Assembly (NCBI RefSeq): GCF_025351285.1
Contig: NZ_JANXWG010000068.1
Span: forward strand, 1-64,000
From: Novosphingobium sp.
Lineage (GTDB): Bacteria; Pseudomonadota; Alphaproteobacteria; Sphingomonadales; Sphingomonadaceae
Direction of reading: 5' to 3'
Length of the DNA: 64,000 nt
Below, piece after piece: positions 21,174 to 49,661 of this stretch. The position numbers were made by a program, and so were the translations under genes. How positions within the stretch are numbered: position 1 is the first letter of the stretch; the number at the start of each line of letters is the position of its first letter. Under the pieces are notes generated by a model that saw only the letters and a list, made by a program, of their open reading frames with translations, did no database searches and was not told where the DNA came from.

Positions 21174-24100
21174 TCACGCCGCCCCTGTCGTCTTGCCCGG
21201 CGCCGAGGGTGAACTGGGGCAGGCGACTTTCACGAACGGATCGAGCACGAACGGGTTGCTGCCGGCAAAGGTGCGAATGCGGAAATCGAAGCGTGCCCCG
21301 CCCTGGGTCAGACTGCCCTCGCCGATCACCGAACTGGCCCCGGGGCGGATCGCGGCCACTTTGGCCAGGCGAAACACCGCCCAGGAACCGGCCCAGGTCC
21401 GCACTTGCGCCGCGCCGCCGGTGGCGACCGGGGTAAACTTCACCGAAGCGCCACCCGACCCTGGCCAGTTGAACGTGGCCGGGATCGGTGATTTGCCGTC
21501 GAAAGTCATCGACTGGCCGTCGATCTCGAGCGTAACCGATCCGGCGCCGGACAGCGCCACTGGTTCGATCTGGTATGACAGCCGCGCCGAATTGGGATCG
21601 CTGGCGAAAAAGGTGTGGGTGATGGTATCGGCGGCCTGCAAGGCGCGGACATTGGCTTCGGTCAGCCCCACATCGGCAGCGTTGGGCTTGGCTGCCCAGA
21701 ACGGCCCGGCGCGGTCGATATAGCCGCCGACTTCATCCGTGACGAACTTGGCAAACCGGCCTTGAGTTGAAAAAAAAACTGTGAAATCGGCAATGGCCAG
21801 GTCTGTCGCGGTGCCCGGCTGGACCGGGAACGCGCGCATCAGCGTCTGCCCGCAGGCATCGCCGAAACTGGCGCTGAGCGCGGCGCCCATCTGCGCGATC
21901 CGCGCCCCTCCCAGCGAGACGTTGGCATCGCTTGCAACAGATTTGGCCCACACCCCCGCCGGCAGCGGCAGGCTGCTACCGGACTGGTCAAGGCTCTGGA
22001 TCAACGCCTTGGCTTCGGTGCTCTGCTGCGATCCCGCATCGCCGCCACCGCCGGGCATCACCGAGATCAGGTTCAGCTTTTCAGCCAGTTGGTTCATCGT
22101 TTGCAGCAGTCCATCGGCCGGGCTGCCATCGCCGGTGCCGATGAACGAGCGCAGCGGCAGGAAGGCCGTCACCGCTTCCGAGCGCCCACCCGCAGGCCCG
22201 GGCACCAGGCCGGCCCGGTTCATCACCTGGCCGGCGAGGCCGGTTGGCGCGCGGATCGGTTCGCCAAGCGCCGTCATGTCGGTGGCCTTGGCGATCGCCT
22301 TCAGGAGCGGCTTGATCGGCGATAACGGGCCAGCGCCATTGCGCAGGCGCTGGACGTTATCGGAAAGCGATGCCACGGGCTTGAGTTGAATCGAAGCCAG
22401 ATAACCCTGCCATCTAGTGACAAATTCACCGAAGTAGAGCTGTTCCAGCCCCCCCTTCAAGGCGATCAGTTCGGTTGCGGACATCTGCGGCGTGCCGGCG
22501 TCGCCCACCACCCACTTTTCTTCCTCGAGCAATTGCGCGCCTTTCGCCACGATCGGCACGAACAGCTTGTCATAGCCGTTGCGCGTGAACAGCGCAGGCA
22601 CGCCGGCGCCCGGCGCGAATGCCCCGGTGGCGGCAAAGAACAGGTCGGGTTGCGGGCCGGCGTTCTCGCGCGCGGTCCACATGCCCGAACCCGATGCCAT
22701 CGCCCTGGACTTGAGCCGCCCATAGACGCGCACCGCTGCCGGCTGGGTGCGGATCACGGCGCGCGCGGATTCCACGCGTTGATCATCGATCGCGATCGGC
22801 TTGAACGCGCCATCGAACAAGGCGGTGGTGTGCCTGGCCAAGTCGGCCGCCTGCACTTCCGAACCCGCGCCACCGCGAGCGACCCACGCCGATTGCACCC
22901 AGGCGACCACCTGTTCGCCCTGGCTCGGCCCGCGTCCGCCCAGGATCAGATACGACTTCAGGTCGTCGTAAAGCGCGGTCGGCGCGCCAGTGTTGGCTGC
23001 CAGTTGCTTTTCGGCAAGATCGGCGAGCAGCGGGGTCAGCCGCATCTGCAAGTCTCGGCCGTAGATGCCCTTGATATCGCCCGCCAACCTGCCGCCCTGC
23101 CCAAGCCCCAGCACGAAGCTGGGGGCGTTGCGCATGTCGTTCTCTGCCTTGCCGAGCGCGCCCAGCGCGGCAAGATCCTGGTCGAGCCCGCTGATCTGGT
23201 GCGTGATATCGCTGTATTCGGCGGTGGTCCTGTCGACTTTGTCGATCAGTTCGGCATTGCGGAAATAGCCCCAGGTCCAGACTGACAACAGCAGGACAAA
23301 GGCCCCTGCTGCCGCGGCGCAGGACACCATGTAGCGTTGTCGGGTGCGCTTTTCCGCAGCGGGACTGCGGCCCGCCATGCCCTGTTCGGGGATGACCAGA
23401 TCGGAAAAGAACCGCTTGAGAAAGTAGCTGCGGCCCTGCCCCACGCCGAACGCCGAGGCGCTGGCGGGAGCGCCGGCGCTGAGCAGGATGCGGTCGACCG
23501 GGTTGCCGGTCTGGATCGCCGAGGCAAGGTACACGCCGCGCAATCGTGCCGGAAGGTCGAACCGGCTCTTCTGGCCCAACGCGGTGATCAGCGCGGCGAT
23601 CGGCGCGCGCAGCGATGCCAGTTGCGCCGGGAACGCGGCGACTTGCGCGCGCAAGTGCATCTGCGATTCGCCCTGCATGCGATCGACCACGCGCGACGAA
23701 ATGCTTGTTACAAGCGCATCGAAACCGCTCAGCACCGCATTTGCATCGGGGTCGGTGCCGGGAACCGTGACGCCCAGCACCTGATCGGATTCACTGTCGG
23801 TGGCGCGGGCGAAGTATTCGCGGAAACCGGCGAGCAGGTCTGCCTTGGTCAGCAGCAGGTAGACCGGCAAGTCCTGCCCGAGCGTGCCACCGATCTCAGC
23901 CAGCCGCGCGCGCACGTTTTCGGCGTGGCTGGCCATCAGGCGCGGGTCGGCCAGGTCAGTCGCTGGAATGGCGACGACGATGCCGTTGAGCGGTTGCAGC
24001 GGGCGGTGGACCTTGAGCAGGTCGAGGAAGCTTTTCCAGCCTTCGCCATCGGCCTTGGCGTCGATGTCCTGCGTGACGTAGCGGCCCGCGGTGTCGATCA

Positions 24101-24614
24101 GCACCGCCTCGTCGGTGAACCACCAATCGCAGTTGGGCGTGATCGGCTGGCCCCGCAGCGCGCGGTATTCGCCGGCGACCGCGGTGGGGAAATTGAGCCC
24201 GCAATTGAGCAGAGCGGTGGTCTTGCCCGCGCCCGAAGGCCCGATGATCACGTACCACGGCAATTGGTACGCATAAGCCTGACGGGTGCCCAGCTTGGTG
24301 GCCTTGAGCATGCCCAGCGCCTGGTCGAGCTTTTCGGCCACTTCGCTGCGTTCGGCCGCCAGGGCATCGGGCTTGAGCGCGTCCATCAGCGCTTCGTTCT
24401 GCGCCCGGTCGCGACGGCGGGCGAGCAAGGCCAGTACGCCGACCACAACCAGCGGCAGCAGCGCGCACAACAGCGTCACCGGCCACCACGCTAACGGCCG
24501 CCAGCCGCCGACCGCGATCAACGGGCCGACGAACCAGATGAACACGCCCAGCGCCAGCGCGCCGACGATGCGCCAGAACCAGCGGTTGCGCAGCAGATCC
24601 TTGACCGAACTCAT
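21174..24614 (-). CDS. tssM: T6SS membrane subunit TssM (IcmF)
   Basis: 1146 aa; IIGPSGAGKTTALLNCGLNFP Walker A, IcmF-type architecture; IDTAGRYVTQD. Confidence 0.93.
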   Translation of the reverse strand: MSSVKDLLRNRWFWRIVGALALGVFIWFVGPLIAVGGWRPLAWWPVTLLCALLPLVVVGVLALLARRRDRAQNEALMDALKPDALAAERSEVAEKLDQALGMLKATKLGTRQAYAYQLPWYVIIGPSGAGKTTALLNCGLNFPTAVAGEYRALRGQPITPNCDWWFTDEAVLIDTAGRYVTQDIDAKADGEGWKSFLDLLKVHRPLQPLNGIVVAIPATDLADPRLMASHAENVRARLAEIGGTLGQDLPVYLLLTKADLLAGFREYFARATDSESDQVLGVTVPGTDPDANAVLSGFDALVTSISSRVVDRMQGESQMHLRAQVAAFPAQLASLRAPIAALITALGQKSRFDLPARLRGVYLASAIQTGNPVDRILLSAGAPASASAFGVGQGRSYFLKRFFSDLVIPEQGMAGRSPAAEKRTRQRYMVSCAAAAGAFVLLLSVWTWGYFRNAELIDKVDRTTAEYSDITHQISGLDQDLAALGALGKAENDMRNAPSFVLGLGQGGRLAGDIKGIYGRDLQMRLTPLLADLAEKQLAANTGAPTALYDDLKSYLILGGRGPSQGEQVVAWVQSAWVARGGAGSEVQAADLARHTTALFDGAFKPIAIDDQRVESARAVIRTQPAAVRVYGRLKSRAMASGSGMWTARENAGPQPDLFFAATGAFAPGAGVPALFTRNGYDKLFVPIVAKGAQLLEEEKWVVGDAGTPQMSATELIALKGGLEQLYFGEFVTRWQGYLASIQLKPVASLSDNVQRLRNGAGPLSPIKPLLKAIAKATDMTALGEPIRAPTGLAGQVMNRAGLVPGPAGGRSEAVTAFLPLRSFIGTGDGSPADGLLQTMNQLAEKLNLISVMPGGGGDAGSQQSTEAKALIQSLDQSGSSLPLPAGVWAKSVASDANVSLGGARIAQMGAALSASFGDACGQTLMRAFPVQPGTATDLAIADFTVFFSTQGRFAKFVTDEVGGYIDRAGPFWAAKPNAADVGLTEANVRALQAADTITHTFFASDPNSARLSYQIEPVALSGAGSVTLEIDGQSMTFDGKSPIPATFNWPGSGGASVKFTPVATGGAAQVRTWAGSWAVFRLAKVAAIRPGASSVIGEGSLTQGGARFDFRIRTFAGSNPFVLDPFVKVACPSSPSAPGKTTGAA

Positions 24615-24627
24615 TGCAAGCCCCCTG

Positions 24628-26061
24628 CTAGCGCCATGCGATGCTGTTCTGCACGCGAAGCTCTACGCGCCGGTTTTCGCGGCGCCCGTCTTCTGTCGTG
24701 TTCTCCCCAACCGGCCGGGTCGAACCGAACCCTGCCGTCGCGAGCCGACCGGCATCGGCAAGACCTGCGCCCTTGAGCGCACGCGCCACCGATTCGGCGC
24801 GCGCCACCGAAAGTTCCTGATTCGACGGGAAGGCCAGCGATGATCGAATCGCCTGATCGTCGGTGTGGCCCTCCACCTTGATGCGGCCCTTGGTGAGGTT
24901 GGCCGCTTCGCTCAGCCGGCCGAACGTGTCGTTCCAACTGCTCGATGCCTCCGCCTGAGCAGAGGCGAACAGCCCCTGGTTGTGCAGGCGGATGACGATG
25001 TCGCTGCCTTCGCGCAGCAGTTCGAGCCGGCCATCGTCGATATCGGGCTTGAGGATCTGACGGATGCGTTCGAATGTGGGCGTCGCGCTTTGGGGCGGGG
25101 GTGCGGGAACTTGCGCGACCCGGCGGCCGACCGCGCGGTCCAGACCGTCGATGGCCGCATCGGCCTTGCCCGAAAGGCGGAACAGCAGCGCGGCAAAAAT
25201 CAGCAGCGCAACCAGCGCAATGCCCGAAAGGATCGCCCACAACGGCACCGGCGGCGCAAACGGCCCGCTGGCGATCGTCTGCCCGCGCCATTGCGGCGAC
25301 AAGTCGGCCGCCTGGGCGCTGCGTTGCCGCTGGATCACGGCCGCCAGCCGTGAACGGCGATCGTTCAACAGCGACTGGCCCCTGGGGTCCAGCGCGGCGC
25401 GGCCTTCGAAGCCCAATGAAAGGCACTGGTACAACAGTTCGACCAGGCGCGGTTCGCGGCCGGGGTCGCGCTCCATCTGTTCGGCGATGCTGAACATGCG
25501 ATCGCCGCCCTGGCTGTCGTTGTGATAGGCCACCAGCAGGCTCTGCCGCGACCACGGGCTGCTGGCGCCCCACGGCGTCGACATAACCGCATCATCGAGG
25601 AACGCACACAGGATATAGTGGCCCAGTTGAACCGATTTCTGCTCCAGCCCCAGTGCACGCGCGCGGCCGGTGAAGGCTTCGAGTTCGTTTGTTGCCAGCC
25701 GCCGCAAAGGTTCGAGCGCGGGGCCGATCGGCAGCGATCGGACATGGCTGGCAAGATGGATCAACCGCCCGGCGGCGGCAACCAGCGGTTCCGGACCGTA
25801 CAACGTCGGTTCGATGGCGGTGAAGTTGATCTCTGCCGGAGCAGCGCCACTGCCTGCGAAGGCTTCGGGCTGGATCGACCGCGGCTGCGGCGGGACGTAG
25901 CCGCCGCTTGTATTGGCAGTAGCACTCGCAGCGCCCCAGGGTGGAGGCGCAGAAGCAGGCGGGAAGCCGCCGGCCGGGGCCGCAGGCCGGGGCGCGCCGG
26001 GGGGTGTTCCGCCTCCGGGGCGAAATACGGTGGCATCGCCATCGTCGTTGTCGTCGCTCAT
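24628..26061 (-). CDS. tssL: T6SS TssL (DotU/IcmH) with C-terminal OmpA/peptidoglycan-binding domain
   Basis: FTAIEPTLYGPEPLVAAAGRLIHLASHV..DotU; C-terminal IKVEGHTDDQAIRSSLAFPSNQELSVARAESVARAL OmpA. ATG 26061 overlaps the tssK stop. Confidence 0.93.
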   Translation of the reverse strand: MSDDNDDGDATVFRPGGGTPPGAPRPAAPAGGFPPASAPPPWGAASATANTSGGYVPPQPRSIQPEAFAGSGAAPAEINFTAIEPTLYGPEPLVAAAGRLIHLASHVRSLPIGPALEPLRRLATNELEAFTGRARALGLEQKSVQLGHYILCAFLDDAVMSTPWGASSPWSRQSLLVAYHNDSQGGDRMFSIAEQMERDPGREPRLVELLYQCLSLGFEGRAALDPRGQSLLNDRRSRLAAVIQRQRSAQAADLSPQWRGQTIASGPFAPPVPLWAILSGIALVALLIFAALLFRLSGKADAAIDGLDRAVGRRVAQVPAPPPQSATPTFERIRQILKPDIDDGRLELLREGSDIVIRLHNQGLFASAQAEASSSWNDTFGRLSEAANLTKGRIKVEGHTDDQAIRSSLAFPSNQELSVARAESVARALKGAGLADAGRLATAGFGSTRPVGENTTEDGRRENRRVELRVQNSIAWR

Positions 26062-27401
26062 GACTGCGCGCCTCGTATTGCCCACATTTCGAGTTCGAGC
26101 CCCGGAACGTCGCCCGCCACGTGCAGCGCGACTGCACCCGACGTGCGCACGGCCTGCCACTGTTCGTGGCGGCTGTTGATGCTGAAGTAGACGGTGTTGG
26201 CGCGGAACGGAATCTGGCGCGGTTCGGCGGCCATCGGGTAGAGATCGGCCCCCGGCAACTGCCGCATCACCAGGTCGCGGATATGTTCGACCGAACCGAT
26301 CTTGGTCCGCCGCGGCATGTTGGCGCGAAGCTGTTCGGTATCGCTCCCGGCGCGCACCGCCAGCACGAACTGCGCGGACGTGAACAACGAACGATCCTGG
26401 ATCTGGCCGACCGAAATGCCGAAAGCGCGCGGTTCGAGCGGGATGGCGACCGCAGTCTGCTCGAACACCTTGCTGAGCGACCGGCGCAAGTCCGCCATTA
26501 CCGCATCGAAGCACAGGCGCTGTTCGCGGTGTGCATAGAGCGGCATGAACTGCGGGCGGTTGGATGAAGCAGTGAAAGTGGACAGTTCGCCCGCCAGCCC
26601 GCACAGCATCCCGTAAAGATCGGCCGGGTGGACCGAAGGCATCACCAGCAAGTGCTTGATTTCGGCTTCGACCCGGTTGATCGTCATCAGCATCAGGAAA
26701 TCGGTGATGTCGGCCACCGCCTTCGCGCCCGGAGTGCCCAGCCGCCCGGCAATCGCCTCGCCCCGCTGGTGCAGCATGCCTTCCAGTTCGTTGAGGAAAC
26801 CGGGCAGGACAGATCCTGCCGCAACCGCCACGCCGCACGGGATAAACCCCGGATCGAGCGTGATCGTATCATCGGCGCGCCGTTCGATCACCCGCGCGAT
26901 CGGCAGCGAGATATAGCCTTCGAGCCCTTCCTGTTCGGTGCGCAAAGACAGTTGCAGCCGGCCGACATTCAGCGCCACCCGCGAAGCGCCGCCATAGACG
27001 GTGTCCGCAGCTTCGAATTCCTCGGCGCGAAAGCGCGGTTCGGCGCGCGTGGTCGAATCGAGCGCGACATCGGCGGTGCCGGCGCGGCGTTCGGGGATGC
27101 ACAAGTGGATCACGCAATCGCGCGTCTCGCGCGACACTTCGAAATGCACCGGCGCCGCGGCTTCCTCGGGCACGCGGAACGGGGTGCCATCTTCGAAAAT
27201 GCCGGCGGCGCGGGTGAGCACGAGCTTGCCGGTCTGCAACGGGCCGGGCGCGATCTGCAATTCGACCAGCCCATAGCCGTGCGAAATCAACGGACGCACC
27301 CGCGCTTCCAGTTGAGCGCCGACAAAACGCTCCAACTGCTGGAAGTGTTGTGGCCGAAGGAACATTCCTTCCGACCAGACGGGCTTGTTTTCCCACGTCA
27401 A
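26058..27401 (-). CDS. tssK: T6SS baseplate subunit TssK
   Basis: NKPVWSEGMFLRPQHFQQLERFVGAQLEARVRPL, canonical TssK N-terminus. Confidence 0.95.
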   Translation of the reverse strand: MTWENKPVWSEGMFLRPQHFQQLERFVGAQLEARVRPLISHGYGLVELQIAPGPLQTGKLVLTRAAGIFEDGTPFRVPEEAAAPVHFEVSRETRDCVIHLCIPERRAGTADVALDSTTRAEPRFRAEEFEAADTVYGGASRVALNVGRLQLSLRTEQEGLEGYISLPIARVIERRADDTITLDPGFIPCGVAVAAGSVLPGFLNELEGMLHQRGEAIAGRLGTPGAKAVADITDFLMLMTINRVEAEIKHLLVMPSVHPADLYGMLCGLAGELSTFTASSNRPQFMPLYAHREQRLCFDAVMADLRRSLSKVFEQTAVAIPLEPRAFGISVGQIQDRSLFTSAQFVLAVRAGSDTEQLRANMPRRTKIGSVEHIRDLVMRQLPGADLYPMAAEPRQIPFRANTVYFSINSRHEQWQAVRTSGAVALHVAGDVPGLELEMWAIRGAQS

Positions 27402-27428
27402 AAGTGATGACCCCCGTCAATTGCCCGA

Positions 27429-28913
27429 TCAGAATACGGACTTCATGAACTTTTCATAGCCTTCACGGAACGCCATGCTCATCACGCCATTGGCATTCGA
27501 CGTGGCATCGCGTTTCAGCGCTTCGAACACCGTGACATAGATCGCCCAGGTGTCGGGCGAGCGGCGGCCCAGCAGCCCCTTTTTCCCGGCCCCGGCCTTT
27601 TCGGTCAGCTTTTGGATTTCGGCGGGCGCCAGCCGGTCGAAGGCCACCATCATCGCCTGCTGGACGCCCGCCAGCATCGCCAACTGGTGCTTCTTCAGGT
27701 CCTCGAACGACGTCCGCAACGCGTCCTCGCTGCCCATGAAGCCGGGCAAGGGCGGGCCGAGCAGCACCTTGGCCGCGTCGATCGCCGGAAGGTGCTTGAG
27801 CGGGTTGTTGCGCCCGATGCTGAGTTGGGTGCGTTCCACCCGGAATTCGTCCTTGAACGCGGCCCGGTCCTGCAGGATGTCGCACAATCCCAGCACCACT
27901 TGCCGATACATCACGCCGAGCCGGTGCATGGCATCGGGCGGCAGCGCCAGGTCTTCGGGCGTCAACCCCGCGCCTTCGTAGAACGCAGCCCAGTCGGGCC
28001 CGCTTGCCGGGGCTGGCAAACGCGCTTGCGGTACGGGCGGGTTCGCGTTGGCCGGAGCGGGAGAGCGGCCGGGGACCGATGGCATGAACGGATCGGCAAA
28101 GGATTGCGGCCGTTCTGCCACGCCGGGGGAAAACGGATCGAACCCGGGCTGCGCAGCCGGAAATGGCGCGGCAACCGGAGGGGCGGCGGTCGCCCGAGCA
28201 AACGGGTCTGCAAACGGATCGCTTCTGCTGGGCAACGGCAGATCGGGAGCCACCGGATCGAGCCGGGCGGGTGCGATTGCCCAATCCTCGGGAATGCCGA
28301 AATCGTTCGAATGGTTCGACGGATCGGCCATGATCGGCCGCTGGAACGCTTGTCCCATGCCTTCGGCAAGCCCGTAATGGGGCGTAAACGGCGCAGGCTC
28401 ATCGCGCTGGGGCCTGGTATCGAGAAACGCATTTCCGCCCGCCAGGAAATCGTGGATCGCGTTGTCGCCCAGCCCGAAATCGTTTTTGCCGAACGGCTCA
28501 GGCGCCGGGATCGACCAGATATCGTTGACCGCGCCATAATCGCCGAGCGCCGGGCCCGATTGCGGCGGCGCCAGGCGGGCGCCCTGCGCGTCGGCCATGG
28601 TCATGATCGTGATCACGAAATCGTTGATCAGCAGGCGATCGTTCGGGCGAACCTGCACCGGCTGGTGCGGGACGATGCGCGCCGACGGGTCGTTCAGCGC
28701 CACGCCGTTCTTGCTGATATCGGTGACAAACAGGTCAAGTCCGCGCGCCATGATCGTGCAGTGTTCGCGCGAGACGAAGCCGTCATCGTTGGCCAGGACG
28801 ATGTCGCAGGATTTCGCGCTGCGCCCGATCCTGATTTCGCCCGAATCGAATTGCCTGCGGTCGAAATAATTGCCGGCGGGATCGCTCAGCCGGGAAAGCA
28901 GCAATGTCCACAT
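27429..28913 (-). CDS. tagH: T6SS-associated FHA domain protein (TagH/Fha)
   Basis: N-terminal FHA (IRIGRSAKSCDIVLANDDGFVSREHCTI), C-terminal TagH region. Confidence 0.88.
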   Translation of the reverse strand: MWTLLLSRLSDPAGNYFDRRQFDSGEIRIGRSAKSCDIVLANDDGFVSREHCTIMARGLDLFVTDISKNGVALNDPSARIVPHQPVQVRPNDRLLINDFVITIMTMADAQGARLAPPQSGPALGDYGAVNDIWSIPAPEPFGKNDFGLGDNAIHDFLAGGNAFLDTRPQRDEPAPFTPHYGLAEGMGQAFQRPIMADPSNHSNDFGIPEDWAIAPARLDPVAPDLPLPSRSDPFADPFARATAAPPVAAPFPAAQPGFDPFSPGVAERPQSFADPFMPSVPGRSPAPANANPPVPQARLPAPASGPDWAAFYEGAGLTPEDLALPPDAMHRLGVMYRQVVLGLCDILQDRAAFKDEFRVERTQLSIGRNNPLKHLPAIDAAKVLLGPPLPGFMGSEDALRTSFEDLKKHQLAMLAGVQQAMMVAFDRLAPAEIQKLTEKAGAGKKGLLGRRSPDTWAIYVTVFEALKRDATSNANGVMSMAFREGYEKFMKSVF

Positions 28914-28917
28914 CGCG

Positions 28918-29526
28918 TCAGGCTTCGAACAGGCGTCGGCGCAGTTCTGTTTGCGCCGCGATTCCGTTCCCCCCCTGCATCAGCGCCACCCCCAGATCCA
29001 GCCAGTCGGCAAACCGCACCCGGCCCTGCAACGCCGGTTCGGACATCAGCAGGATCAGCGCGGTACGCACCGCCAAGCCCGGCAGATGCGGCGGCGGCGC
29101 AACCGGCGGCATACCCCTGGCGACCAGCGAGGGGCCCGCCCAGGACGCAGCAGTGGCAACCCAGGCCGGGGCAAAATCGTTGTTGGCACGGGCCGCGACT
29201 TCACCGGCAGATTCGGCATCGTCATGGCTTGCGCTGCGCACCCATTTCTCGGCGGCCTCCACCGCCGCAGCATCGGCCTTGCGCTGGTCGAGGCCGGGCA
29301 GGATCTGCGAAGCAAGGCAACCCAGCCAGACCACCTCACGATGCGGCAACATCAGCACCAGCGCGCGGACGGCGTCTTCATCCAATTGGGCCGCACGCAG
29401 TGTTTCCAGGTAACGGATTGGGTGTGGATGGCTGGCGAGCATGCCCAGTCCCGCCGGTGACAAATCGGCCTTGGCTTCGAATTCGGCACGTTGGAAACGC
29501 AGCGGGATTGCAGGACTTGTTGCCAT
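28918..29526 (-). CDS. T6SS-cluster hypothetical protein (possibly DUF6931-like)
   Basis: 202 aa between tagH and vgrG; family assignment is from memory and uncertain. Confidence 0.6.
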   Translation of the reverse strand: MATSPAIPLRFQRAEFEAKADLSPAGLGMLASHPHPIRYLETLRAAQLDEDAVRALVLMLPHREVVWLGCLASQILPGLDQRKADAAAVEAAEKWVRSASHDDAESAGEVAARANNDFAPAWVATAASWAGPSLVARGMPPVAPPPHLPGLAVRTALILLMSEPALQGRVRFADWLDLGVALMQGGNGIAAQTELRRRLFEA

Positions 29527-29540
29527 TCTCGATCCCGTCG

Positions 29541-31436
29541 TCAGTTGATCAAAACGACGCCACCCTTGAGGATGAGCGTTGCGTCACCGGTTACCTGGGT
29601 CATCGGAGCCTGCAATGTTGCCTGCCCGCCGGCCTTCATGTCAAGTTTGGCATCGGCGGTGATCTCGATTTTCGGAGCCTTGATCTGGATGCCCGACATT
29701 GTCAGCTTGATGCTGCACGGACCGACAAGGATTTCGATTTCCTTCTTGGATTCAAGCGTGTTCTTGTCGACGACCGTGATCGTCCGGGTTTTCTTGACGT
29801 CGGTGGTATGCTTGCCATCGATCTTCACGGTGCGGTCACGCGTGACCGTCAGCTTCTGGTCGCGCTCGACCGCGAGCGTCTGGTCGCGCTTTACCGTGCC
29901 CCAATCGTCCTGATCGACAATGCGGCGGTAATCGCGGCCGGTGTAAAGGTAGATTTCTTCCTTGCCGGGCTTGTCCTCGAACCGGAATTCCTGGACGATT
30001 TTGCCGTTGCCATCGGTGATCGACCGCCATCCGCTTTGGGTGGGCGTCTTGCGCGGATCGAACGGATAATGCTGCGACGGCGTGTAGATTGTGCCGGCAA
30101 TGAACGGCAGATCCGGATTGCCGTAAAGGAAATCGACGATCACCCGCGTGCCGATCCGCGGCAGGAATTGCGCGCCGTGGCTGCCGTGGGCCCATTGCTG
30201 CTGCACCGCCAGCCAGACAAAGCGCGGCAAGCCCTGCTTCTTGTAGTCTCGGGCGTTCGAGATTTTGACAGGAACCCGAAACTGGTCATCAACCTTGATG
30301 TGCCCGGTCGCGGTGCTGCCGTCATCGTCGATCACGCCCAGCACAGGCCCGCGCGCCAGCCGTTCGTGCGTGGCGACATGCGGCCGCCAGGTCTTGGTGG
30401 AATCGATTGCCTCGAAAAAGTTGCTGTAGCTGCCAGGGCCGGCATTGGGCAGCATCCACGGATCGTAGGCGGAGTGAACGACGCTGGCGAGTACCACCCG
30501 GCGCGGCACGAAATGTGCGTCCTCGAGAATTTCGACGCGACCGCCGGCCTGGAAACCGGGTTCGGTCGAGCTGCCGTGGATCACGTCCGAAGCGTTCGCA
30601 AACTGCTGGTCGTGCGCAGCCTGCCGGGTGGCCACGTCTCCGCTGGCCAAAGCTTCGTAGCCGATGGTCTCGTGATCGTGGGTGTAAACCGCGCCCCACT
30701 TCTCGCTGGCGGTGCCATGCGCCACGAACGGCGTGTCGAGCTTGTTGGGGTTGAACGAAACGTGATTGAACGATCGCGGGGCGGCGCGATACTGGCGTTC
30801 GAGCGATGTAATCGCGCCGGTGGTCGAATGCGGCAGGAAACGCACCGGGCCACCGGGAAAATCGATATAATCGGCCGGCTTGTTGGTCACGATCATCTTG
30901 TGGTGGAAACTGCCCGCTCCCTGATCGTACTTGAAGAAGTACATGATCCCGTCATGGGCAAGCTGGCGCGCAAGAAATTCAAGTTCACTTTCGTCATAGC
31001 GAACCGCATAGCCCCGTTTGGGCGGGCGCGGGGCAACGTTGATCGATTTGACGAGGCCCGTTACTTCACCAGTCAACGCTTCGAAAATATCGATGCTGGA
31101 TTTGTCCTGGATGAACTGCGTTGCCCGCGAATAAGCGAGCGCCTGGTAGGCTGGCCCGATATGGACCTGGATGCGCGGCGAACCGCCATCATCCACCCTA
31201 CGCGCAGCATAGATGCGCCCGGCAAAAGTACGGGCCGCGTTCCAGCCCTGGGCAATTTCGAATTCCGCAAGCTTGCCGATCCAGGACGAAAGATCCGGCT
31301 TTTGTGTCGTCAGCAGTTCGATCGTATAGTCGAACGGTTCCGAAATCGCTTCGCGGGCGTGAACGCTCAGCAGCGCATACTCATCGATCGGCGCGTCAGC
31401 CAGCACCTTGAGATTCAGGAGATGTTTTTCCAGCAT
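29541..31436 (-). CDS. vgrG: T6SS spike protein VgrG (TssI)
   Basis: PFDYTIELLT, RIGTRVIVDFLYGNPDLPFIAGTIYTPSQHYPF, C-terminal beta-helix repeats. Confidence 0.95.
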   Translation of the reverse strand: MLEKHLLNLKVLADAPIDEYALLSVHAREAISEPFDYTIELLTTQKPDLSSWIGKLAEFEIAQGWNAARTFAGRIYAARRVDDGGSPRIQVHIGPAYQALAYSRATQFIQDKSSIDIFEALTGEVTGLVKSINVAPRPPKRGYAVRYDESELEFLARQLAHDGIMYFFKYDQGAGSFHHKMIVTNKPADYIDFPGGPVRFLPHSTTGAITSLERQYRAAPRSFNHVSFNPNKLDTPFVAHGTASEKWGAVYTHDHETIGYEALASGDVATRQAAHDQQFANASDVIHGSSTEPGFQAGGRVEILEDAHFVPRRVVLASVVHSAYDPWMLPNAGPGSYSNFFEAIDSTKTWRPHVATHERLARGPVLGVIDDDGSTATGHIKVDDQFRVPVKISNARDYKKQGLPRFVWLAVQQQWAHGSHGAQFLPRIGTRVIVDFLYGNPDLPFIAGTIYTPSQHYPFDPRKTPTQSGWRSITDGNGKIVQEFRFEDKPGKEEIYLYTGRDYRRIVDQDDWGTVKRDQTLAVERDQKLTVTRDRTVKIDGKHTTDVKKTRTITVVDKNTLESKKEIEILVGPCSIKLTMSGIQIKAPKIEITADAKLDMKAGGQATLQAPMTQVTGDATLILKGGVVLIN

Positions 31437-31512
31437 GGTGCTTGGCAATCATCAACAGGGGTTGGGCAGCAGCGCCATGCAGCGACCACTGCCCATCGGC
31501 CTGAAACCGGCC

Positions 31513-31989
31513 TTAGCTGGTCTTGGCTTGTGCCAGATCGTAAACCAGATGGGTCGGTGTTGCCTTGCCGGTTGAATCGCGATCGTTCCAGGTCCAGTCG
31601 AACTTGGTGAAGTTCAGCGAAAGCGATTCCGACGGCACTTCGCCGCCAGAGCTTTGGCTGAAGCCGCTGACGATGACATTTTCCAGATCGATCACGGCGT
31701 AAGCCACCGATTCGCCCTTGGCAGTAGCAACGAAGCTGATTGTTGCCTTGTTGTCCTGCTTGCCCATCAGCAGCGCCTTGAACAGGAGCTGGCTCGACTT
31801 GTCGGAGTGTTTGGTCACGGTGATCTCGGAGACGCTCGCCTTGCCGAGTGCGCGGTCGGCACCCTTGGCGTTCGACGAACCGACGCTCAGGCCGGCTCCC
31901 CACTGGAAGCTTTCGATCACGATCTGGTCTTTGAACTTGGAATCCGTGGAATTGCCTTTAACGTCGGCAAACTTCAGGAAAATAGCCAT
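31513..31989 (-). CDS. hcp: T6SS tube protein Hcp (TssD)
   Basis: MAIFLKFADVKGNSTDSKFKDQIVIESFQWGAG..SVSEITVTKHSDKSSQLLFKALL. Confidence 0.95.
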   Translation of the reverse strand: MAIFLKFADVKGNSTDSKFKDQIVIESFQWGAGLSVGSSNAKGADRALGKASVSEITVTKHSDKSSQLLFKALLMGKQDNKATISFVATAKGESVAYAVIDLENVIVSGFSQSSGGEVPSESLSLNFTKFDWTWNDRDSTGKATPTHLVYDLAQAKTS

Positions 31990-32063
31990 TTTCGCCTCCT
32001 TCAAAAATCAATTTGCGGCAATGCCGGATTGGCGGCCCGTCGCGGGGTGGAAACACTTGGACA

Positions 32064-34715
32064 TCACGTGATCGTGATCGCGTAGCCTGCATCCTGACTT
32101 GCTGCGACTTGCACGTGGGTGACATTCGTGCCCTCCGCGCGCAGTTCGAGCAATTGTCCGGCCAGATCCGCCAAAAGACCGCGCTTCAGAATGTTTTCGA
32201 TATTGCGCGCCCCGCTTTCCACTTCAGTACACCTTGCTACTAAAGCGTCAAGAAGGTCATCATCCCAAGCAAATGTAGCCGCGTAATTGCTGACCACTCG
32301 CTTGCGGATCCGTTCGAGGCTGATGACGACAATTTCGCGCATGATATGCGGCTGGAGCGGGAAGTACGGCACCGTCACCAAACGGCCGAGAAATGCCGGC
32401 TTGAAATATTCCAGCAGCGCGGGCCGCAGTTCCTTCGCCAGATCCTCGGGCTCAGGCATCACTTCGGCATCGCGGCACAACGCTTCGATCGTATCGGTCC
32501 CGGCGTTGGAAGTCATAATAATCAATGTGTTCTTGAAATCGATGTCGCGGCCTTGCCCATCCTTGAGCATGCCCTTGTCGAACACCTGGTAGAACACATC
32601 CTGAACCCCCGGATGCGCCTTTTCCATCTCGTCGAGCAGGATCACCGAATAGGGCTTGCGCCGCACGGCCTCGGTCAGGACGCCGCCTTCGCCATAGCCG
32701 ACATAGCCCGGCGCGGCGCCGACCAGCGTCGATACCTTATGTTCTTCCTTGAATTCGCTCATGTTGATGGTGGTGACGTTCTGTTCACCGCCATAAAGCA
32801 GCTCGGCCAGCGCCAGCGCCGTCTCGGTCTTGCCGACGCCAGAAGTGCCGCAGAACAGGAACACGCCCAAAGGCTTGCGTGGATCGGCCAGGCCAGCACG
32901 TCCGGTGCGCACGGTTTCGGCGATGATGTCGAGCGCGTGGGGCTGGCCCTTGATCCGTTCGCCCAACCGGTCGGCCACCGTCAGGACAGCGCGAATTTCG
33001 TTGCTGACCATGCGGCCAACCGGAATTCCGGTCCATCCGGCAAGCACTTCGGCGACGACGTTGCGATCGACGACATCGTATACGATCGGGTGTTCGCCCT
33101 GGATTTCCGCGAGTGCGGCCTGGGCCTTGCGAAGTTCGGCCACCGCTGCGTCGTCGGTGGCAGGGTCACCGCTTTTCACCTCGGCAGCGTCGCGCGCGGC
33201 AGCCACCGCCTTGACCGCGGCCAGTTCGGTTTGCCAGTGCGCGGACAGTTCGGCCTTTTTCGCCTCGATCTCGTCCTTTTCGGTGCCCTTGGCGGCCAGA
33301 GCCTCGACAACGTCGACCCCGCTCCGGCCTTCGCGTTCGAGCATGGAGACTTCCGACGCGAGCAGGCCCAGCTTGCGTTCCAGATCCTCGACGACCGCGG
33401 GGGTGGCGACCTGGCTGATGCCGACGCGCGCGCAAGCGGTATCGAGCAGCGAGATCGCCTTGTCGGGCAATTGCCGGCCCGTGATGTAGCGGTGAGACAG
33501 CGTGGCTGCGGCCTCCAGCGCTTCGCCCAGAATCCGCACGCCGTGGTGCTTTTCCAGAACCGGAACCAATCCGCGCAACATCGCCACGGCCAGTGATTCG
33601 ACCGGTTCCTCCACTTTCACGACCTGGAAGCGGCGGGTCAGTGCAGGATCTTTTTCGAAGTATTTCTTGTATTCGGCCCAAGTCGTCGCCGCGATCGTGC
33701 GCATTTCGCCGCGCGCCAGTGCGGGCTTGAGCAGGTTGGCCGCATCGTTCTGTCCCTCGGCGCCGCCCGCCCCGATCAGCGTGTGCGCTTCATCGATGAA
33801 CACGATGATCGGCGTCGGCGAATTCTTGACCTCGTCGATCACCGACTTGAGCCGGTTTTCGAATTCGCCCTTGATGCCGGCGCCCGCTTGCAGCAGGCCG
33901 AGATCGAGCGAGAGCAGGCGGATATTGCGCAGCGCTTCGGGCACGTCGCCCTGCACGATGCGCAAGGCAAAGCCTTCGACCACCGCGGTCTTGCCCACGC
34001 CCGCCTCACCGGTCAGGATCGGGTTGTTCTGGCGGCGGCGGGTGAGGATATCGACGATCTGGCGGATTTCCGGATCGCGCCCGAAAATCGGATCGATCTT
34101 GCCGTCGCGGGCCTGCTGGGTCAGGTCGATGGTGAACTTGTCGAGCGAACCGCCAGCGTGGACACCGGCACTGGCGCCGGTGCCGCCGGGGGCCGCTCCA
34201 CCGCTCGGCGTGGCGGCATCGGCGCTCGTCGCCACGGATGCTTCTTCGGAGGCAGCAGCAATCGTGCCGAGCGAGCCCTTCAAACCTTCGAACGGGACCT
34301 TGGCGAATTGTGTGCTGGCGTCCTTTGCCACGCGCGACAAATCGTCATTGCCGAGCAGCGCCACCAGCAAGTGGCCGGACCGCACCGCGCTCGCCCCGTA
34401 TTCGAGCGAGGCAACCAGCCACCCTTCCTGAAGCAGGCGGACGACATTCGGCGCGATGGCCGGGGCGCGGCCGTTGCCGGTCTTGAAGCGATCGACCTGG
34501 CGATTGATATCCTGCGCCAGCCGGCCGACATCGACCGAAAAGTGATTGAGAACAATGGTCAGGTCCGAAGACTGCCGGTCGAGCAACTTGAGCAGCCAGT
34601 GTTCGACCTCGACGTCGTAGTTCGTGCGCGAAAGCGCCAGGCCTGCCGCAGATTCAAGTGCCGCCCGGCAGGTATCGTCCAGACGACCAATCAGGTTCTT
34701 CAGGTTGAACTGCAT
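32064..34715 (-). CDS. clpV: T6SS ATPase TssH (ClpV)
   Basis: Two AAA+ modules (GEAGVGKTAVVEG, CGTSGVGKTETALALAELLYGGEQ) with T6SS ClpV-type N-domain. Confidence 0.96.
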   Translation of the reverse strand: MQFNLKNLIGRLDDTCRAALESAAGLALSRTNYDVEVEHWLLKLLDRQSSDLTIVLNHFSVDVGRLAQDINRQVDRFKTGNGRAPAIAPNVVRLLQEGWLVASLEYGASAVRSGHLLVALLGNDDLSRVAKDASTQFAKVPFEGLKGSLGTIAAASEEASVATSADAATPSGGAAPGGTGASAGVHAGGSLDKFTIDLTQQARDGKIDPIFGRDPEIRQIVDILTRRRQNNPILTGEAGVGKTAVVEGFALRIVQGDVPEALRNIRLLSLDLGLLQAGAGIKGEFENRLKSVIDEVKNSPTPIIVFIDEAHTLIGAGGAEGQNDAANLLKPALARGEMRTIAATTWAEYKKYFEKDPALTRRFQVVKVEEPVESLAVAMLRGLVPVLEKHHGVRILGEALEAAATLSHRYITGRQLPDKAISLLDTACARVGISQVATPAVVEDLERKLGLLASEVSMLEREGRSGVDVVEALAAKGTEKDEIEAKKAELSAHWQTELAAVKAVAAARDAAEVKSGDPATDDAAVAELRKAQAALAEIQGEHPIVYDVVDRNVVAEVLAGWTGIPVGRMVSNEIRAVLTVADRLGERIKGQPHALDIIAETVRTGRAGLADPRKPLGVFLFCGTSGVGKTETALALAELLYGGEQNVTTINMSEFKEEHKVSTLVGAAPGYVGYGEGGVLTEAVRRKPYSVILLDEMEKAHPGVQDVFYQVFDKGMLKDGQGRDIDFKNTLIIMTSNAGTDTIEALCRDAEVMPEPEDLAKELRPALLEYFKPAFLGRLVTVPYFPLQPHIMREIVVISLERIRKRVVSNYAATFAWDDDLLDALVARCTEVESGARNIENILKRGLLADLAGQLLELRAEGTNVTHVQVAASQDAGYAITIT

Positions 34716-34886
34716 CTGCCCCTCTTCAAAACAAACCGACTTCAGCGGCCAGAAAGACGCGAATCAGCGTCCAAGAATATTTGAACATGCAAATCGAAAT
34801 GTGTTTGCTTATCCGTAGTTTGGCAATTGCGAACCGGAAACAGACAAAAGACTAACGGACACCCTTACAAGCCTCAACTTGTTTTT

Positions 34887-36008
34887 TCAGTGCAGCGCGG
34901 CAAGGTCGACCGGGATCGTGCAATCGCGCGCAGTTCCGTCGAAAGTCTCGGGAGTCCCCAACCAGGTGGTCCAGCCGAGCAGCGCCGGGGTTGCGTCGTC
35001 ACCCAGCCGCAGCGGCGGGATTTCGCTTTCGTCGATCAACAGCCGCAAGATGGGGCGATGCTCAAGCCCGGCGGTCAGCACGCATAACTGGCTGATCAAC
35101 CTGCGCTTTTCCGGGCGGGCGCACAGGCCGTGCAACTGTGTGTAAGTCAGCGGGCCGATCTCGACCGTATAGTGGTGCTGCACGTCGAGCACCGCAGCGC
35201 CGATCATCGCCGCTTCGCCCTGGCCGCGTTCATCGGCCGAAGGATCGGTGCCAAGCTGGACGAACTGGCCGTGCAAGCCGCCCAGCCGAGTTTGTTCCGA
35301 AGCCGGCACGTCCATCCACACCGGGCATGCCTCGATCACGCGCAACGGCATTCCGATCAGCGCGCGCAGCACGCTTTCGACACTGGCCGCACTGCGCCGG
35401 CTGTCAGCCAGTTGCGCGGTCAGCGTGACCAGCAGCGCATCATCGATATCGAGCCGCTGGCGCATACCCGGCACCGCCAGGCCGACCAGCGAGGTCAGGA
35501 ATTTTTCGACCGGATCGCCCTGCCCCTGCGCGTGGCCATGACTTTGCGCGTGTCCGTGCCGTTCTGCGAGCAGCGGCCAGCGGAACTTGCGGGTAATCCG
35601 ATAGAAGAACGACAACGCGCGATGATCGAAGATATTGAGGAAATCGCCGAGCGCGTTGTCCCGCTGCCGGCGCCGGCTCAACTGCAGTTCGCTGTAGGCC
35701 GGGGGCAGCACCGGCGATGCGCCCGCCAGCCCCAGAATGTTCGCGACGATCTTGACCTGGCCGGGCCTGACCTGACCGGAATTGGCTTGCGTCGGTCGAA
35801 GTTCCACTTCCGCCAGATCGTTGCTGACCAGCGACATGCGTTCGGACGCAAAGAACCGGATCGGTTCCTCGTCGGGCACCGCATCGTGGCCGACTTCGCC
35901 CGGTCGCCCGCTACGCAAGGCCACTTCCTCGACCGTCCGGGCAGCCTGGTCCAGCGTGGCCCGGCGCAGCGATTCAAGCCGAGCCGGGCTGAGCGGCGGC
36001 GCCTTCAC
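34887..36008 (-). CDS. tssG: T6SS baseplate subunit TssG
   Basis: EEPIRFFASERMSLVSNDLAEVEL, FFYRITRKFRWP; GTG at 36008 overlaps the tssF stop. Confidence 0.9.
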   Translation of the reverse strand: MKAPPLSPARLESLRRATLDQAARTVEEVALRSGRPGEVGHDAVPDEEPIRFFASERMSLVSNDLAEVELRPTQANSGQVRPGQVKIVANILGLAGASPVLPPAYSELQLSRRRQRDNALGDFLNIFDHRALSFFYRITRKFRWPLLAERHGHAQSHGHAQGQGDPVEKFLTSLVGLAVPGMRQRLDIDDALLVTLTAQLADSRRSAASVESVLRALIGMPLRVIEACPVWMDVPASEQTRLGGLHGQFVQLGTDPSADERGQGEAAMIGAAVLDVQHHYTVEIGPLTYTQLHGLCARPEKRRLISQLCVLTAGLEHRPILRLLIDESEIPPLRLGDDATPALLGWTTWLGTPETFDGTARDCTIPVDLAALH

Positions 36009-37831
36009 ACCAGTTGCCGATCGCCGAAGCGCGGAGCCCACGTTTTCCAGACGCCATCGTCCTGCTGCAACTTGGCCGAAACCCGCACGAAGCTGTTCAT
36101 CGCGCAGGCGCCGGCCAGGAACCGTTCGATCACCGCGCACAACAGGAAGCTGCCCGAGCCCGAGAGGCGATCGTCGTCGATCTCCAGCGTAACGTCGATG
36201 CCCGAAGCAAAGGCGGTGTGACCGCGCAAGCGCAGCCGCGCGACCCCGGGCGCCGCCGAAATTCCGACCAGCCGTTCGCGCAAGTGCGCGCTTTCGTCCG
36301 AATCGACGAGGTCGTACAATGCCAGGACTTCGCGCAAGGCCCGCGCCCCGGTTTCACCGCCGACGAAGCTGAGGTAGTTGAGCGAAAGCTGGCCGAGCAG
36401 CTTCCAGTTCGCCCCGCGCCGCCGGCTGGGGCGACGGGTCGAGGTCGGCTTGGTCAGTGCCTTGAGCTGGGCCAATCCGTTGATGGTGCCACTCGGCGAC
36501 AGCGTCGGCCGCCCGCCACCGAACGGCAGGCGTGAAGGGAGGTCACGATTGGTGGCGAGAATCCTGGCCTGGATGACGGTGGAATCGTCCTGGAGCAACG
36601 CCCCTTCAAGGTCCGCGATCGTCAGGAACACATCGTCGCCACCGCCCGGGCTGAAACTGGTGCGGCGCGAAACCGCATGGAAGAATTCACCCCTGCGCGG
36701 GGAGCCGCGATCGATCGAATAGAGCGATGGCGCGGGAATGCGTTCGCCGCCCGCGGTCTGCAAGGCAACGTCGACCACGGCCTGGACTTCGATCGCATCC
36801 TCGCGGTGAGCGCTGGGAATGACGCGGTATTCGATCGACGAATGATCGAGGTGGATCGGTTCTGCATCGAGTTCGAACAGGTTGAGCGCGGGCGCCGCAT
36901 AGAGTTCGAAATCCTCGGGCCGCACCACCCGTTCCAGCTCGGGCGAGAGGCGATCGAAGAAGAAAAACAGCTCGAGTTGGCCCGCATCGAGTTCGAGCGT
37001 GCGCCGCGACAAGCCGCCGATCTCGAAGAACAGGTGCTTGTGCGGATAAGCGAAGTGCTCCTGCAGCAGCGCGTAGGATTTCTGGTCGGTCGGACGCGGG
37101 GGCAGCAGCAGGCCATCCTCCTCGATGCCGATCAGCTTAACCGAGGACGCCGGCAACAGCACCGCGCGTGGATCGGCCACATTCGCGCACACGCCGACGC
37201 CGATCAGGTTGTTGCCCAGTTGTTCGAGCAGGATCTGCGCGCGCCGAGCGTCGCTCTTGATGAAGAATCGCAAGGAATCGAGTTCGAGCGAAGCAATGCT
37301 GATTTCCGGCTTGCTGGTCTCCAGCGTCAACCGCAACAGCCCGCGCGCCGCGCCCATTCCCAAGGCCGAAAACGCTGCCGGGCTATCGAACGGGGTGCCG
37401 ACCATCGTCGCGCTGGCCAGCCGCAACGGCAACAGTCGCACATCCGAACAGAGCCGGTAGCGGCACGGTTCGCCATCGACTTCCTCGGTGATGAACTGGG
37501 TTCCGGCGGGCACCAGCACCGGCTTGTCGAGATCTTCACCCGGTTCCAGTTGCGTGATCATCAGTGACGGCAGCGGCTGGACCAGATGCGGGTACAGTGT
37601 CAGCAGCAGCGCGTCGGAAAGTTCCGCATAGTCCTCGTCGAGCTTGTGGCGCAGCCGGGCATTGAGGAACGCGACCGATTCGATCAGCCGTCCGACATGC
37701 GGGTCTTCGAGCGATTCACGCGTAACGCGCAGGCGCGATGCGATCTTGGGATAGGCATCGGCAAAGGCGCCGGCATTGTTCAGCAGGAAAGTGCGTTCGC
37801 GGTCATAGTATTCGATCAGTTCGTCGATCAC
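36005..37831 (-). CDS. tssF: T6SS baseplate subunit TssF
   Basis: LIEYYDRERTFLLNNAGAFADAYPKIASRLRVTRESLEDPHVGRLIESVAFLNARL. Confidence 0.95.
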   Translation of the reverse strand: MIDELIEYYDRERTFLLNNAGAFADAYPKIASRLRVTRESLEDPHVGRLIESVAFLNARLRHKLDEDYAELSDALLLTLYPHLVQPLPSLMITQLEPGEDLDKPVLVPAGTQFITEEVDGEPCRYRLCSDVRLLPLRLASATMVGTPFDSPAAFSALGMGAARGLLRLTLETSKPEISIASLELDSLRFFIKSDARRAQILLEQLGNNLIGVGVCANVADPRAVLLPASSVKLIGIEEDGLLLPPRPTDQKSYALLQEHFAYPHKHLFFEIGGLSRRTLELDAGQLELFFFFDRLSPELERVVRPEDFELYAAPALNLFELDAEPIHLDHSSIEYRVIPSAHREDAIEVQAVVDVALQTAGGERIPAPSLYSIDRGSPRRGEFFHAVSRRTSFSPGGGDDVFLTIADLEGALLQDDSTVIQARILATNRDLPSRLPFGGGRPTLSPSGTINGLAQLKALTKPTSTRRPSRRRGANWKLLGQLSLNYLSFVGGETGARALREVLALYDLVDSDESAHLRERLVGISAAPGVARLRLRGHTAFASGIDVTLEIDDDRLSGSGSFLLCAVIERFLAGACAMNSFVRVSAKLQQDDGVWKTWAPRFGDRQLV

Positions 37832-38295
37832 TTCAAATCAACCTGTATGACCCGGTCGCCGGGATTGACCTTGGCCTCGTAAACCACGACGTCGCGGTTG
37901 CGCGTGAGCGTCAGTTGCGCGGAAATCCGCAGCCGGATCCCGCTCGAGGTCGGGCCTTCATCGATATCGACTTCCACCTGGCTGAGCCTGGATTCGTGCG
38001 CCATGACCGCCTGCGCCACCATCCGGCGCACCCGTTCGCGCGCGCCGACGGTGCTGAGATCTTCGGTGCTGATATCGTGGAGCCCGAAACCGATGATGGT
38101 CTGGTCGAGCGCCGGGTACCGATCGAACGCTTCGAAGTCGGGGCGCTTGGCATTGAGCAGCGCCTCCAGGTCCGCACGCAGGCCGATCTTGTAGCGATGC
38201 AGCGCCTGCGCGTCGGTTTCGGCACTTTCGACCGCCTGATCGGGCTCGTTGTCGATCAACCGGTCGAGCAGCGAATGCGTGATCGTTTTCGACAC
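37828..38295 (-). CDS. tssE: T6SS baseplate subunit TssE (gp25-like)
   Basis: SLLDRLIDNEP..LRADLEALLNAKRP..NYP-like GFGLHDIS; GTG at 38295 overlapping the upstream stop region. Confidence 0.9.
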   Translation of the reverse strand: MSKTITHSLLDRLIDNEPDQAVESAETDAQALHRYKIGLRADLEALLNAKRPDFEAFDRYPALDQTIIGFGLHDISTEDLSTVGARERVRRMVAQAVMAHESRLSQVEVDIDEGPTSSGIRLRISAQLTLTRNRDVVVYEAKVNPGDRVIQVDLK

Positions 38296-39827: not shown

Positions 39828-39840
39828 ACCCTGTCAGGTT

Positions 39841-41337: not shown

Positions 41338-41341
41338 TGTC

Positions 41342-41857
41342 TTACTCCGCTGAGTCATCGGTGCCGGCGCCAAGCTGCTTTTGTAGTTCGCCAAGCTTGG
41401 TCTGGTCGGCCAAAATCTGTTCGAGCAGGTTTTCGAGGCCTTCGGAACTGTCTGCTTTCGCCATCAGGTCGCGCAGGCGATTGCGGGTTTCCATCAGCTT
41501 GCGCAAAGGTTCGACTTGCTCGACAATCTTTTCAGGGTCGAAATCGTCCATCGACCTGAACTTGAGATTGACTTCAAATTCCTTGCCGTTTTTCTCGATG
41601 GTGTTTTCGACCTTCATCTTCACGCCGGGTTCGATCCGCGACATGACCTGGTCGAACTTGTCTTTCTTGAGGTCGATGAACTTGCGTTCCTTCAGCGACT
41701 TCTTGGCAATTTCGCTGTCGCCCGAAAAATCACCCAAAACGCCCACGACAAACGGCAATTCCTTCGAGACTTGCGCCCCTTCGGTTTCGACATCGTAAGT
41801 AATGTGGACGCGCGGTTTGCGAACCCTCTTGAGCTTGTCGTGTACCGAGTCAGCCAT
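41342..41857 (-). CDS. tssB: T6SS contractile sheath small subunit TssB
   Basis: [30 protein letters not shown]. Confidence 0.95.
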
Positions 41858-41935
41858 CTAAGCCTCCTTTTTCATCATCGCTTGCAACGACCGGTGATCC
41901 GGCAGTTTGCAATAACCAAGCCCAAAAATCCCTCG

Positions 41936-43135: not shown

Positions 43136-43333
43136 TCCCACCTGTTCAGGCAGCAACTTACAGGCTTGGCCCCGGCACTCCACATTTTTTTACAGCCCGC
43201 CACGATTATCTGGTCATATTGGAACAGACGACGACAATCAGGCCGCCAGCTTCGCGACTTGACGACAGGCGCACTTGCCCGACGGGAATCGTCGGCGGCC
43301 GACCGGGCAACCATCTAGCCCACGGCCCGCTGC

Positions 43334-49559: not shown

Positions 49560-49661
49560 GGATGTCACGCCTCGTTTCCATGATGCTTGCGAACAATAGA
49601 CACCGAATTCTCTTGCCTGCAACTTTTTCACTTGGTTGGATTGTTGGCGCGATGCTAAATC

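What the first reader, a model, noticed from the sequence alone, without database searches (positions are those of the whole stretch)
26015..26061. TssL N-terminal phospho-motif shared with the PpkA kinase
TssL starts MSDDNDDGDATVFRPGGGTPPGAPRP and PpkA (48804 to ~48730) starts MTDVSDDENDRDDTVFRPSGATPPPSPP: the same acidic tract + TVFRP + GxTPP in otherwise unrelated proteins. In Agrobacterium, PpkA phosphorylates TssL Thr14 and the FHA protein binds it. Here TssL Thr11 and PpkA Thr14 are likely FHA-docking sites, so the kinase itself may compete for or recruit FHA proteins.
Basis: partly seen in the sequence, partly recalled or inferred. Interest (0 to 1): 0.75.

Follow-up and report, generated by a model that had tools for sequence, protein, structure and literature searches.

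The report
Shared phospho-threonine tag, TssL and PpkA
The weapon-assembly protein TssL and the kinase PpkA that controls it carry the same short threonine tag on floppy tails, conserved across a bacterial lineage, most likely as docking sites that FHA adaptor proteins read once the tag is phosphorylated.

Summary
TssL (26061..24628, -) begins MSDDNDDGDATVFRP, and the T6SS kinase PpkA carries DRDDTVFRP near its start plus a second, unreported copy (GEGETVFSP, Thr codon at 48624). The match exceeds chance (shuffle p about 3e-5), and all five TVFRP codons differ at their third base, so a recent DNA copy is unlikely. In 80 related T6SS loci (mostly Sphingomonadales/Caulobacterales), T[VI]FxP occurs in 70/76 intact TssL N-termini and 42/57 PpkA N-termini; the other 15 kinases carry recognisable variants. 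The target residue was always Thr (73/73 TssL, 67/67 PpkA), never Ser. The wider "GxTPP" similarity is not conserved, and homology favours PpkA's start at GTG 48795, making its Thr residue 11, not 14. Across 60 phylum-wide loci, a looser TssL N-terminal Thr motif tracks a linked kinase (30/36 vs 5/24), and motif-bearing loci with an FHA protein always keep the FHA pocket Arg and Ser (33/33). These associations rest on few independent evolutionary events. Best reading: PpkA-phosphorylated, FHA-read docking sites. TssL parallels Agrobacterium pThr14; the PpkA copies parallel the autophosphorylated tail of mycobacterial PknG. Phosphorylation and binding are inferred, not shown. New variant of a known pathway.

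The parts
26017..26061 (-). TssL N-terminal motif MSDDNDDGDATVFRP; Thr11 codon 26031-26029
   Evidence: T, F and P of the motif invariant in 11 same-genus TssLs whose surrounding tails diverge
24628..26061 (-). tssL (DotU + OmpA), 477 aa
   Evidence: Pfam PF09850 E 1.1e-54, PF00691 E 4.1e-12; TIGR03349 over its cut-off
48751..48795 (-). PpkA N-terminal motif copy 1, MSDDENDRDDTVFRP from GTG 48795; Thr codon 48765-48763
   Evidence: T, V, F, P invariant in 11 PpkAs
48610..48636 (-). PpkA motif copy 2, GEGETVFSP; Thr codon 48624-48622
   Evidence: 10 of 57 related PpkAs carry more than one strict copy
46699..48804 (-). ppkA, Hanks-type kinase with membrane segment and C-terminal part; start 48804 or, favoured by homology, 48795
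   Evidence: Pfam Pkinase E 1.9e-29; HRD and DFG motifs present; first ~100 residues low-confidence in AF2, kinase domain confident
48801..49775 (-). pppA, PP2C phosphatase overlapping ppkA
   Evidence: Pfam PP2C E 1.8e-16; Stp1-type family just under cut-off
27429..28913 (-). Fha/TagH 1, likely reader: FHA domain with Arg31, Ser48, His51, Asn69, plus T6SS_FHA_C
   Evidence: Pfam, TIGR03354 over cut-off; pocket residues invariant in the 25-row alignment
44870..45823 (+). Fha/TagH 2, second FHA protein; keeps Arg, Ser and His, Asn replaced by Ser
   Evidence: Pfam; pocket call RSHS
21174..43183 (-). T6SS core cluster: TssM, TssL, TssK, Fha, VgrG, ClpV, TssG, TssF, TssE, two TssC, TssB, TssA
   Evidence: Pfam

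Best explanation
The D/E-rich [R/K/A/D]T[V/I]FxP element is a short linear motif at the disordered N-termini of TssL and PpkA. Proposed mechanism: (1) PpkA phosphorylates the motif Thr in TssL and, by autophosphorylation, in its own tail (one to three copies in this lineage); (2) the FHA domains of the cluster's Fha/TagH proteins bind the phosphothreonines through Arg31/Ser48-type pockets; (3) the pThr tail of PpkA gathers Fha at the kinase, as the autophosphorylated N-terminal tail of mycobacterial PknG recruits GarA/OdhI, while pThr11 of TssL recruits Fha to the membrane complex and licenses assembly, as in Agrobacterium; (4) PppA reverses both. Shown here: the motifs, their conservation, strict Thr, intact FHA pockets, and co-occurrence. 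Inferred: phosphorylation, binding, order of events, and whether PpkA hands Fha over to TssL or competes for it.
For: The motif stands out in otherwise fast-diverging tails of both proteins. T[VI]FxP in 70/76 TssL and 42/57 PpkA; every remaining PpkA has a variant such as DRTIIRP, DKTVIRP, ERTVYRP or DRTVVAP. The Fha proteins lack the motif (0/50 and 0/53), so they look like readers rather than carriers. FHA pocket residues R31, S48, H51, N69 are invariant in the 25-row alignment. Phylum-wide, the TssL motif is in 30/36 loci with a linked kinase vs 5/24 without (p 2.3e-6), 35 of 60 observed vs 1.9 expected in shuffled tails. FHA pocket intact in 33/33 motif-bearing loci with FHA; all 8 pocket-less loci are motif-less (p 9.5e-6). 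Agrobacterium: PpkA-dependent pThr14 of TssL binds Fha through its FHA pocket (PMC3953482). PknG tail precedent (PMC8546545). Catalytically active PpkA binds Fha better than a dead mutant in Acidovorax (PMC12607579).
Against: No phosphorylation or binding data for this organism. The +3 residue, usually important to FHA domains (general knowledge), is mostly Arg in TssL (59/71) but of 11 kinds in PpkA. The phylum-wide associations rest on few independent events: 3-4 independent pairs on supported branches; where the second trait differed it went the same way in nearly all pairings, but significance could not be reached. The held-out 20 loci alone give p 0.07. Five kinase-less loci still have the TssL motif. 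In P. aeruginosa and Serratia the reported PpkA target is Fha, not TssL. Agrobacterium Fha binds the pTssL peptides only at about 0.5-1.6 mM.
Confidence: 0.66

Rival explanations
1. The motif is only the preferred substrate sequence of PpkA. TssL is a target and the PpkA tail is an autophosphorylation or activation site; FHA binds TssL but not the PpkA copies.
For: The core seen in PpkA (acidic run, R/K at -1, V, F, P at +4) with a free +3 looks as much like a kinase consensus as an FHA consensus.
Against: A Ser/Thr kinase consensus alone would be expected to tolerate Ser at some sites; none was seen in 140 instances. Several PpkAs hold two or three copies, which fits multivalent docking.
Confidence: 0.2
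2. The tail motif of PpkA is an intramolecular element (pseudosubstrate or autoinhibitory), and the likeness to TssL reflects competition for the kinase active site.
For: It lies in a disordered stretch before the kinase domain in all related PpkAs and carries the same sequence as the presumed substrate.
Against: The Thr is kept, whereas a pseudosubstrate usually lacks the acceptor; AF2 leaves the tail unplaced (pLDDT about 40-50), though AF2 is weak on such contacts.
Confidence: 0.07
3. The motif is an unphosphorylated docking element for another T6SS part or for the membrane complex.
For: In many TssLs conservation runs past the core (TVFRPSPLxG), more than an FHA site needs.
Against: Invariant Thr and co-occurrence with kinase and intact FHA pocket.
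Confidence: 0.05
4. Coincidence of low-complexity, acidic and proline-rich tails.
For: The flanks are low complexity and shared 5-mers occur in about 5% of shuffles.
Against: Conservation in dozens of loci and a local alignment score outside all 3000 shuffles.
Confidence: 0.02

Closest known systems
Agrobacterium tumefaciens PpkA - pThr14 TssL - Fha pathway (PMC3953482)
   Same: Thr 11-14 residues from the TssL start, followed by V and a hydrophobic residue; cluster has kinase, PP2C and FHA protein with R and S pocket residues
   Different: Motif there is LPTVVEI, here DATVFRP; no kinase-tail copy was reported in the passages read; this window has two FHA proteins
PknG - GarA/OdhI recruitment in actinobacteria (PMC8546545)
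   Same: Disordered N-terminal kinase tail with several Thr; there shown to be autophosphorylated and read by an FHA domain, here proposed
   Different: Different kinase family and output; PknG tail is poorly conserved in sequence, whereas here a sharp TVFxP motif is kept and is also present in a second protein, TssL
PpkA/PppA/Fha1 of Pseudomonas aeruginosa and Serratia; PpkA-Fha of Acidovorax citrulli (PMC12607579)
   Same: Same regulators; catalytically active PpkA binds Fha more strongly (Acidovorax)
   Different: Reported phosphosite is on Fha there; here the Fha proteins lack the motif and TssL and PpkA carry it

Membership tests
T6SS threonine phosphorylation pathway (PpkA/PppA/Fha) | Hanks-type kinase, PP2C phosphatase and T6SS FHA protein encoded in the T6SS cluster | tested here: met
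T6SS threonine phosphorylation pathway (PpkA/PppA/Fha) | Kinase-dependent Thr phosphorylation of a T6SS protein | not testable with these tools
   Needs phosphoproteomics
Agrobacterium-type TssL phospho-site | Thr near the TssL N-terminus, before the DotU domain, in a conserved motif | tested here: met
   Thr11; 70/76 in related loci
Agrobacterium-type TssL phospho-site | Sequence identity to the validated site (LPTVVEI) | tested here: not met
   Only T-V-hydrophobic shared
Agrobacterium-type TssL phospho-site | FHA pocket Arg and Ser in the partner Fha | tested here: met
PknG-like kinase-tail FHA docking | Disordered N-terminal kinase tail with conserved Thr sites | tested here: met
PknG-like kinase-tail FHA docking | Tail Thr autophosphorylated and bound by an FHA domain | not testable with these tools
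   Needs in vitro kinase and binding assays

The most novel reading that the evidence does not exclude
In Sphingomonadales and Caulobacterales, PpkA is also a multivalent phospho-scaffold: its autophosphorylated tail, with one to three copies of the TssL docking motif, concentrates Fha at the kinase and hands it to pTssL, so copy number and the kinase/phosphatase balance set a threshold for T6SS assembly. More widely, an N-terminal TssL Thr motif read by Fha is an old and common feature of kinase-controlled T6SSs across Proteobacteria, lost together with the kinase and the FHA pocket.
Probability: 0.4. Interest if true: 0.68.

Novelty: new variant of a known kind. Interest (0 to 1): 0.56.

Why it matters
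Why some T6SSs are said to be controlled through TssL and others through Fha, and how Fha reaches the membrane complex, are open. A named motif in both kinase and target predicts exact phosphosites, gives peptides to test, and extends the Agrobacterium pThr14 finding, reported there as restricted to Agrobacterium/Rhizobium (PMC3953482), to a testable rule for many T6SS clusters. It also suggests PknG-like FHA recruitment by a kinase tail outside actinobacteria.

Tried and rejected
Recent DNA duplication or gene conversion of the tail: unlikely, all five TVFRP codons differ at the third base. GxTPP as part of the motif: not conserved. Motif in Fha or other cluster proteins: none in Fha; only four stray hits in other frames. 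Kinase call filtered by HRD: my filter, not part of the plan set beforehand, wrongly dropped kinases with HGD or HSD loops, so one search's contingency table is superseded. Solved-structure relatives: none for FHA1; mycobacterial and other FHA domains for FHA2. AF2 of the PpkA tail places no contact for the motif, uninformative for short motifs. No paper in the held library holds both 'TssL' and 'TVFRP'.

Full report
Check of the observation. TssL (window 26061..24628, minus strand) starts MSDDNDDGDATVFRPGGGTPPGAPRP and PpkA (48804..46699, minus strand) starts (M)TDVSDDENDRDDTVFRPSGATPPPSPP, as described. A second copy, GEGETVFSP, lies in PpkA with its Thr codon at 48624. The 60-residue tails align with score 105, where 3000 composition-preserving shuffles gave a mean of 42 and none reached it; p from a Gumbel fit is 2.7e-5. 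Six-frame search of the 4.08 Mb genome finds TVFRP at four places; besides these two, the others lie in short frames that look spurious. The five TVFRP codons differ at every third base (ACC GTA TTT CGC CCC against ACG GTT TTC CGA CCA), so the likeness is held at the protein level.

Surroundings. The window holds a T6SS cluster: TssM, TssL, TssK, Fha, VgrG, ClpV, TssG, TssF, TssE, two TssC, TssB, TssA, a second FHA protein with a T6SS FHA C-terminal domain on the other strand (44870..45823), and PppA overlapping PpkA. PpkA keeps the catalytic HRD and DFG motifs.

Conservation within the group. In same-genus genomes, alignments of 11 TssLs and 11 PpkAs (window included) show invariant T, F and P of the motif in TssL and invariant T, V, F and P in PpkA, in tails that otherwise diverge. 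In 80 named loci, mostly Sphingomonadales and Caulobacterales, plus the window, T[VI]FxP occurs in 70 of 76 intact TssL N-termini and 42 of 57 PpkA N-termini, 10 of the latter with more than one copy; all 15 other PpkAs carry variants by eye. Searching for any residue before [VI][hydrophobic]xP found Thr in 73 of 73 TssL and 67 of 67 PpkA cases, with one off-register Arg set aside. Position +3 is Arg in 59 of 71 TssL motifs but of 11 kinds in PpkA. Information content peaks at -1 to +4 and, in PpkA, falls to background at +3 and beyond +4; T and P are partly fixed by the search pattern in that profile. In two of the closest PpkAs (G050, G064) no start codon lies upstream of the GTG equivalent to 48795, so I place the PpkA Thr at residue 11 and the second copy at residue 58.

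Beyond the group. In 60 TssL loci from across the phylum, a looser motif (T[VI][VIFMLY] in the first 45 residues, or [DN][RK]TxxxP) was found in 30 of 36 with a kinase within 20 kb and 5 of 24 without (p 2.3e-6). The pattern was set after seeing 40 loci and written down before reading the other 20; those 20 alone give 8 of 11 against 2 of 9 (p 0.07). Shuffled tails would give about 2 of 60. One locus (J246) has the Agrobacterium-like form NLPTIVEL. Among loci with an FHA protein, all 33 with the motif keep the pocket Arg and Ser; all 8 that lost either lack the motif (p 9.5e-6). On a DotU tree these are few independent events: 8 changes of the motif, 3 of the pocket, 3 to 4 independent pairs on supported branches, nearly always the same direction where they differ, but too few for significance. 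The kinase-tail copy is rare outside this group: 3 of 37 kinases, in two loci (J214, J286), where the TssL motif has a similar form.

Mechanism. The simplest reading is a phospho-dependent docking motif made by PpkA and read by FHA. In Agrobacterium, PpkA-dependent pThr14 of TssL (DLPpTVVEI) binds the FHA pocket of Fha and this is needed for full secretion, with a weak (0.5-1.6 mM) peptide affinity (PMC3953482); a review and a later paper report TssL as PpkA target in Vibrio alginolyticus too. In PknG, autophosphorylated Thr residues in a disordered N-terminal tail recruit FHA substrates (PMC8546545). In Acidovorax, Fha binds catalytically active PpkA more strongly than a dead mutant (PMC12607579). 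PpkA's first 100 residues are predicted disordered. Phosphorylation, binding and the direction of Fha traffic are inferred.

Verdict. A true, conserved, paired motif with a testable role; a new variant of the known threonine phosphorylation pathway.

Noticed in passing
window 48610-48636 (-): Second TVFxP copy in PpkA, GEGETVFSP; related PpkAs hold one to three copies.
   Followed up: yes
window 44870-45823 (+): Second T6SS FHA protein (FHA + T6SS_FHA_C) on the opposite strand; pocket Asn replaced by Ser.
   Followed up: partly
L080:14907-17536 (G000:C50:24907-27536, -): Paralogous PpkA-PP2C pair with DRTVITP and DKTVMRT in its tail, next to an Rce1-like protease, an OmpA-family and a CHAT-domain protein. 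The genome search found only one TssL-like gene and no FHA gene on C50.
   Followed up: partly
phylum sample J220, J226, J230, J232, J234, J242, J294 (loci L220-L221 to L294-L295): T6SS FHA proteins in clusters without a nearby kinase have lost the pThr-pocket Arg or Ser, suggesting FHA domains kept for a phosphate-independent role.
   Followed up: partly
loci L286-L287 (J286) and L214-L215 (J214): Outside the group, kinase tails and TssL carry matching motifs (TVF/TIF with TVF; TVV with TVV).
   Followed up: no
window 38295-39827 and 39841-41394 (-): Two adjacent TssC-like sheath genes.
   Followed up: no
window 46009-46623 (+): 204-aa ORF beside ppkA with hydrophobic stretches and no Pfam or NCBIfam match.
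   Followed up: no
window 28918-29526 (-): DUF6931 protein between VgrG and Fha.
   Followed up: no
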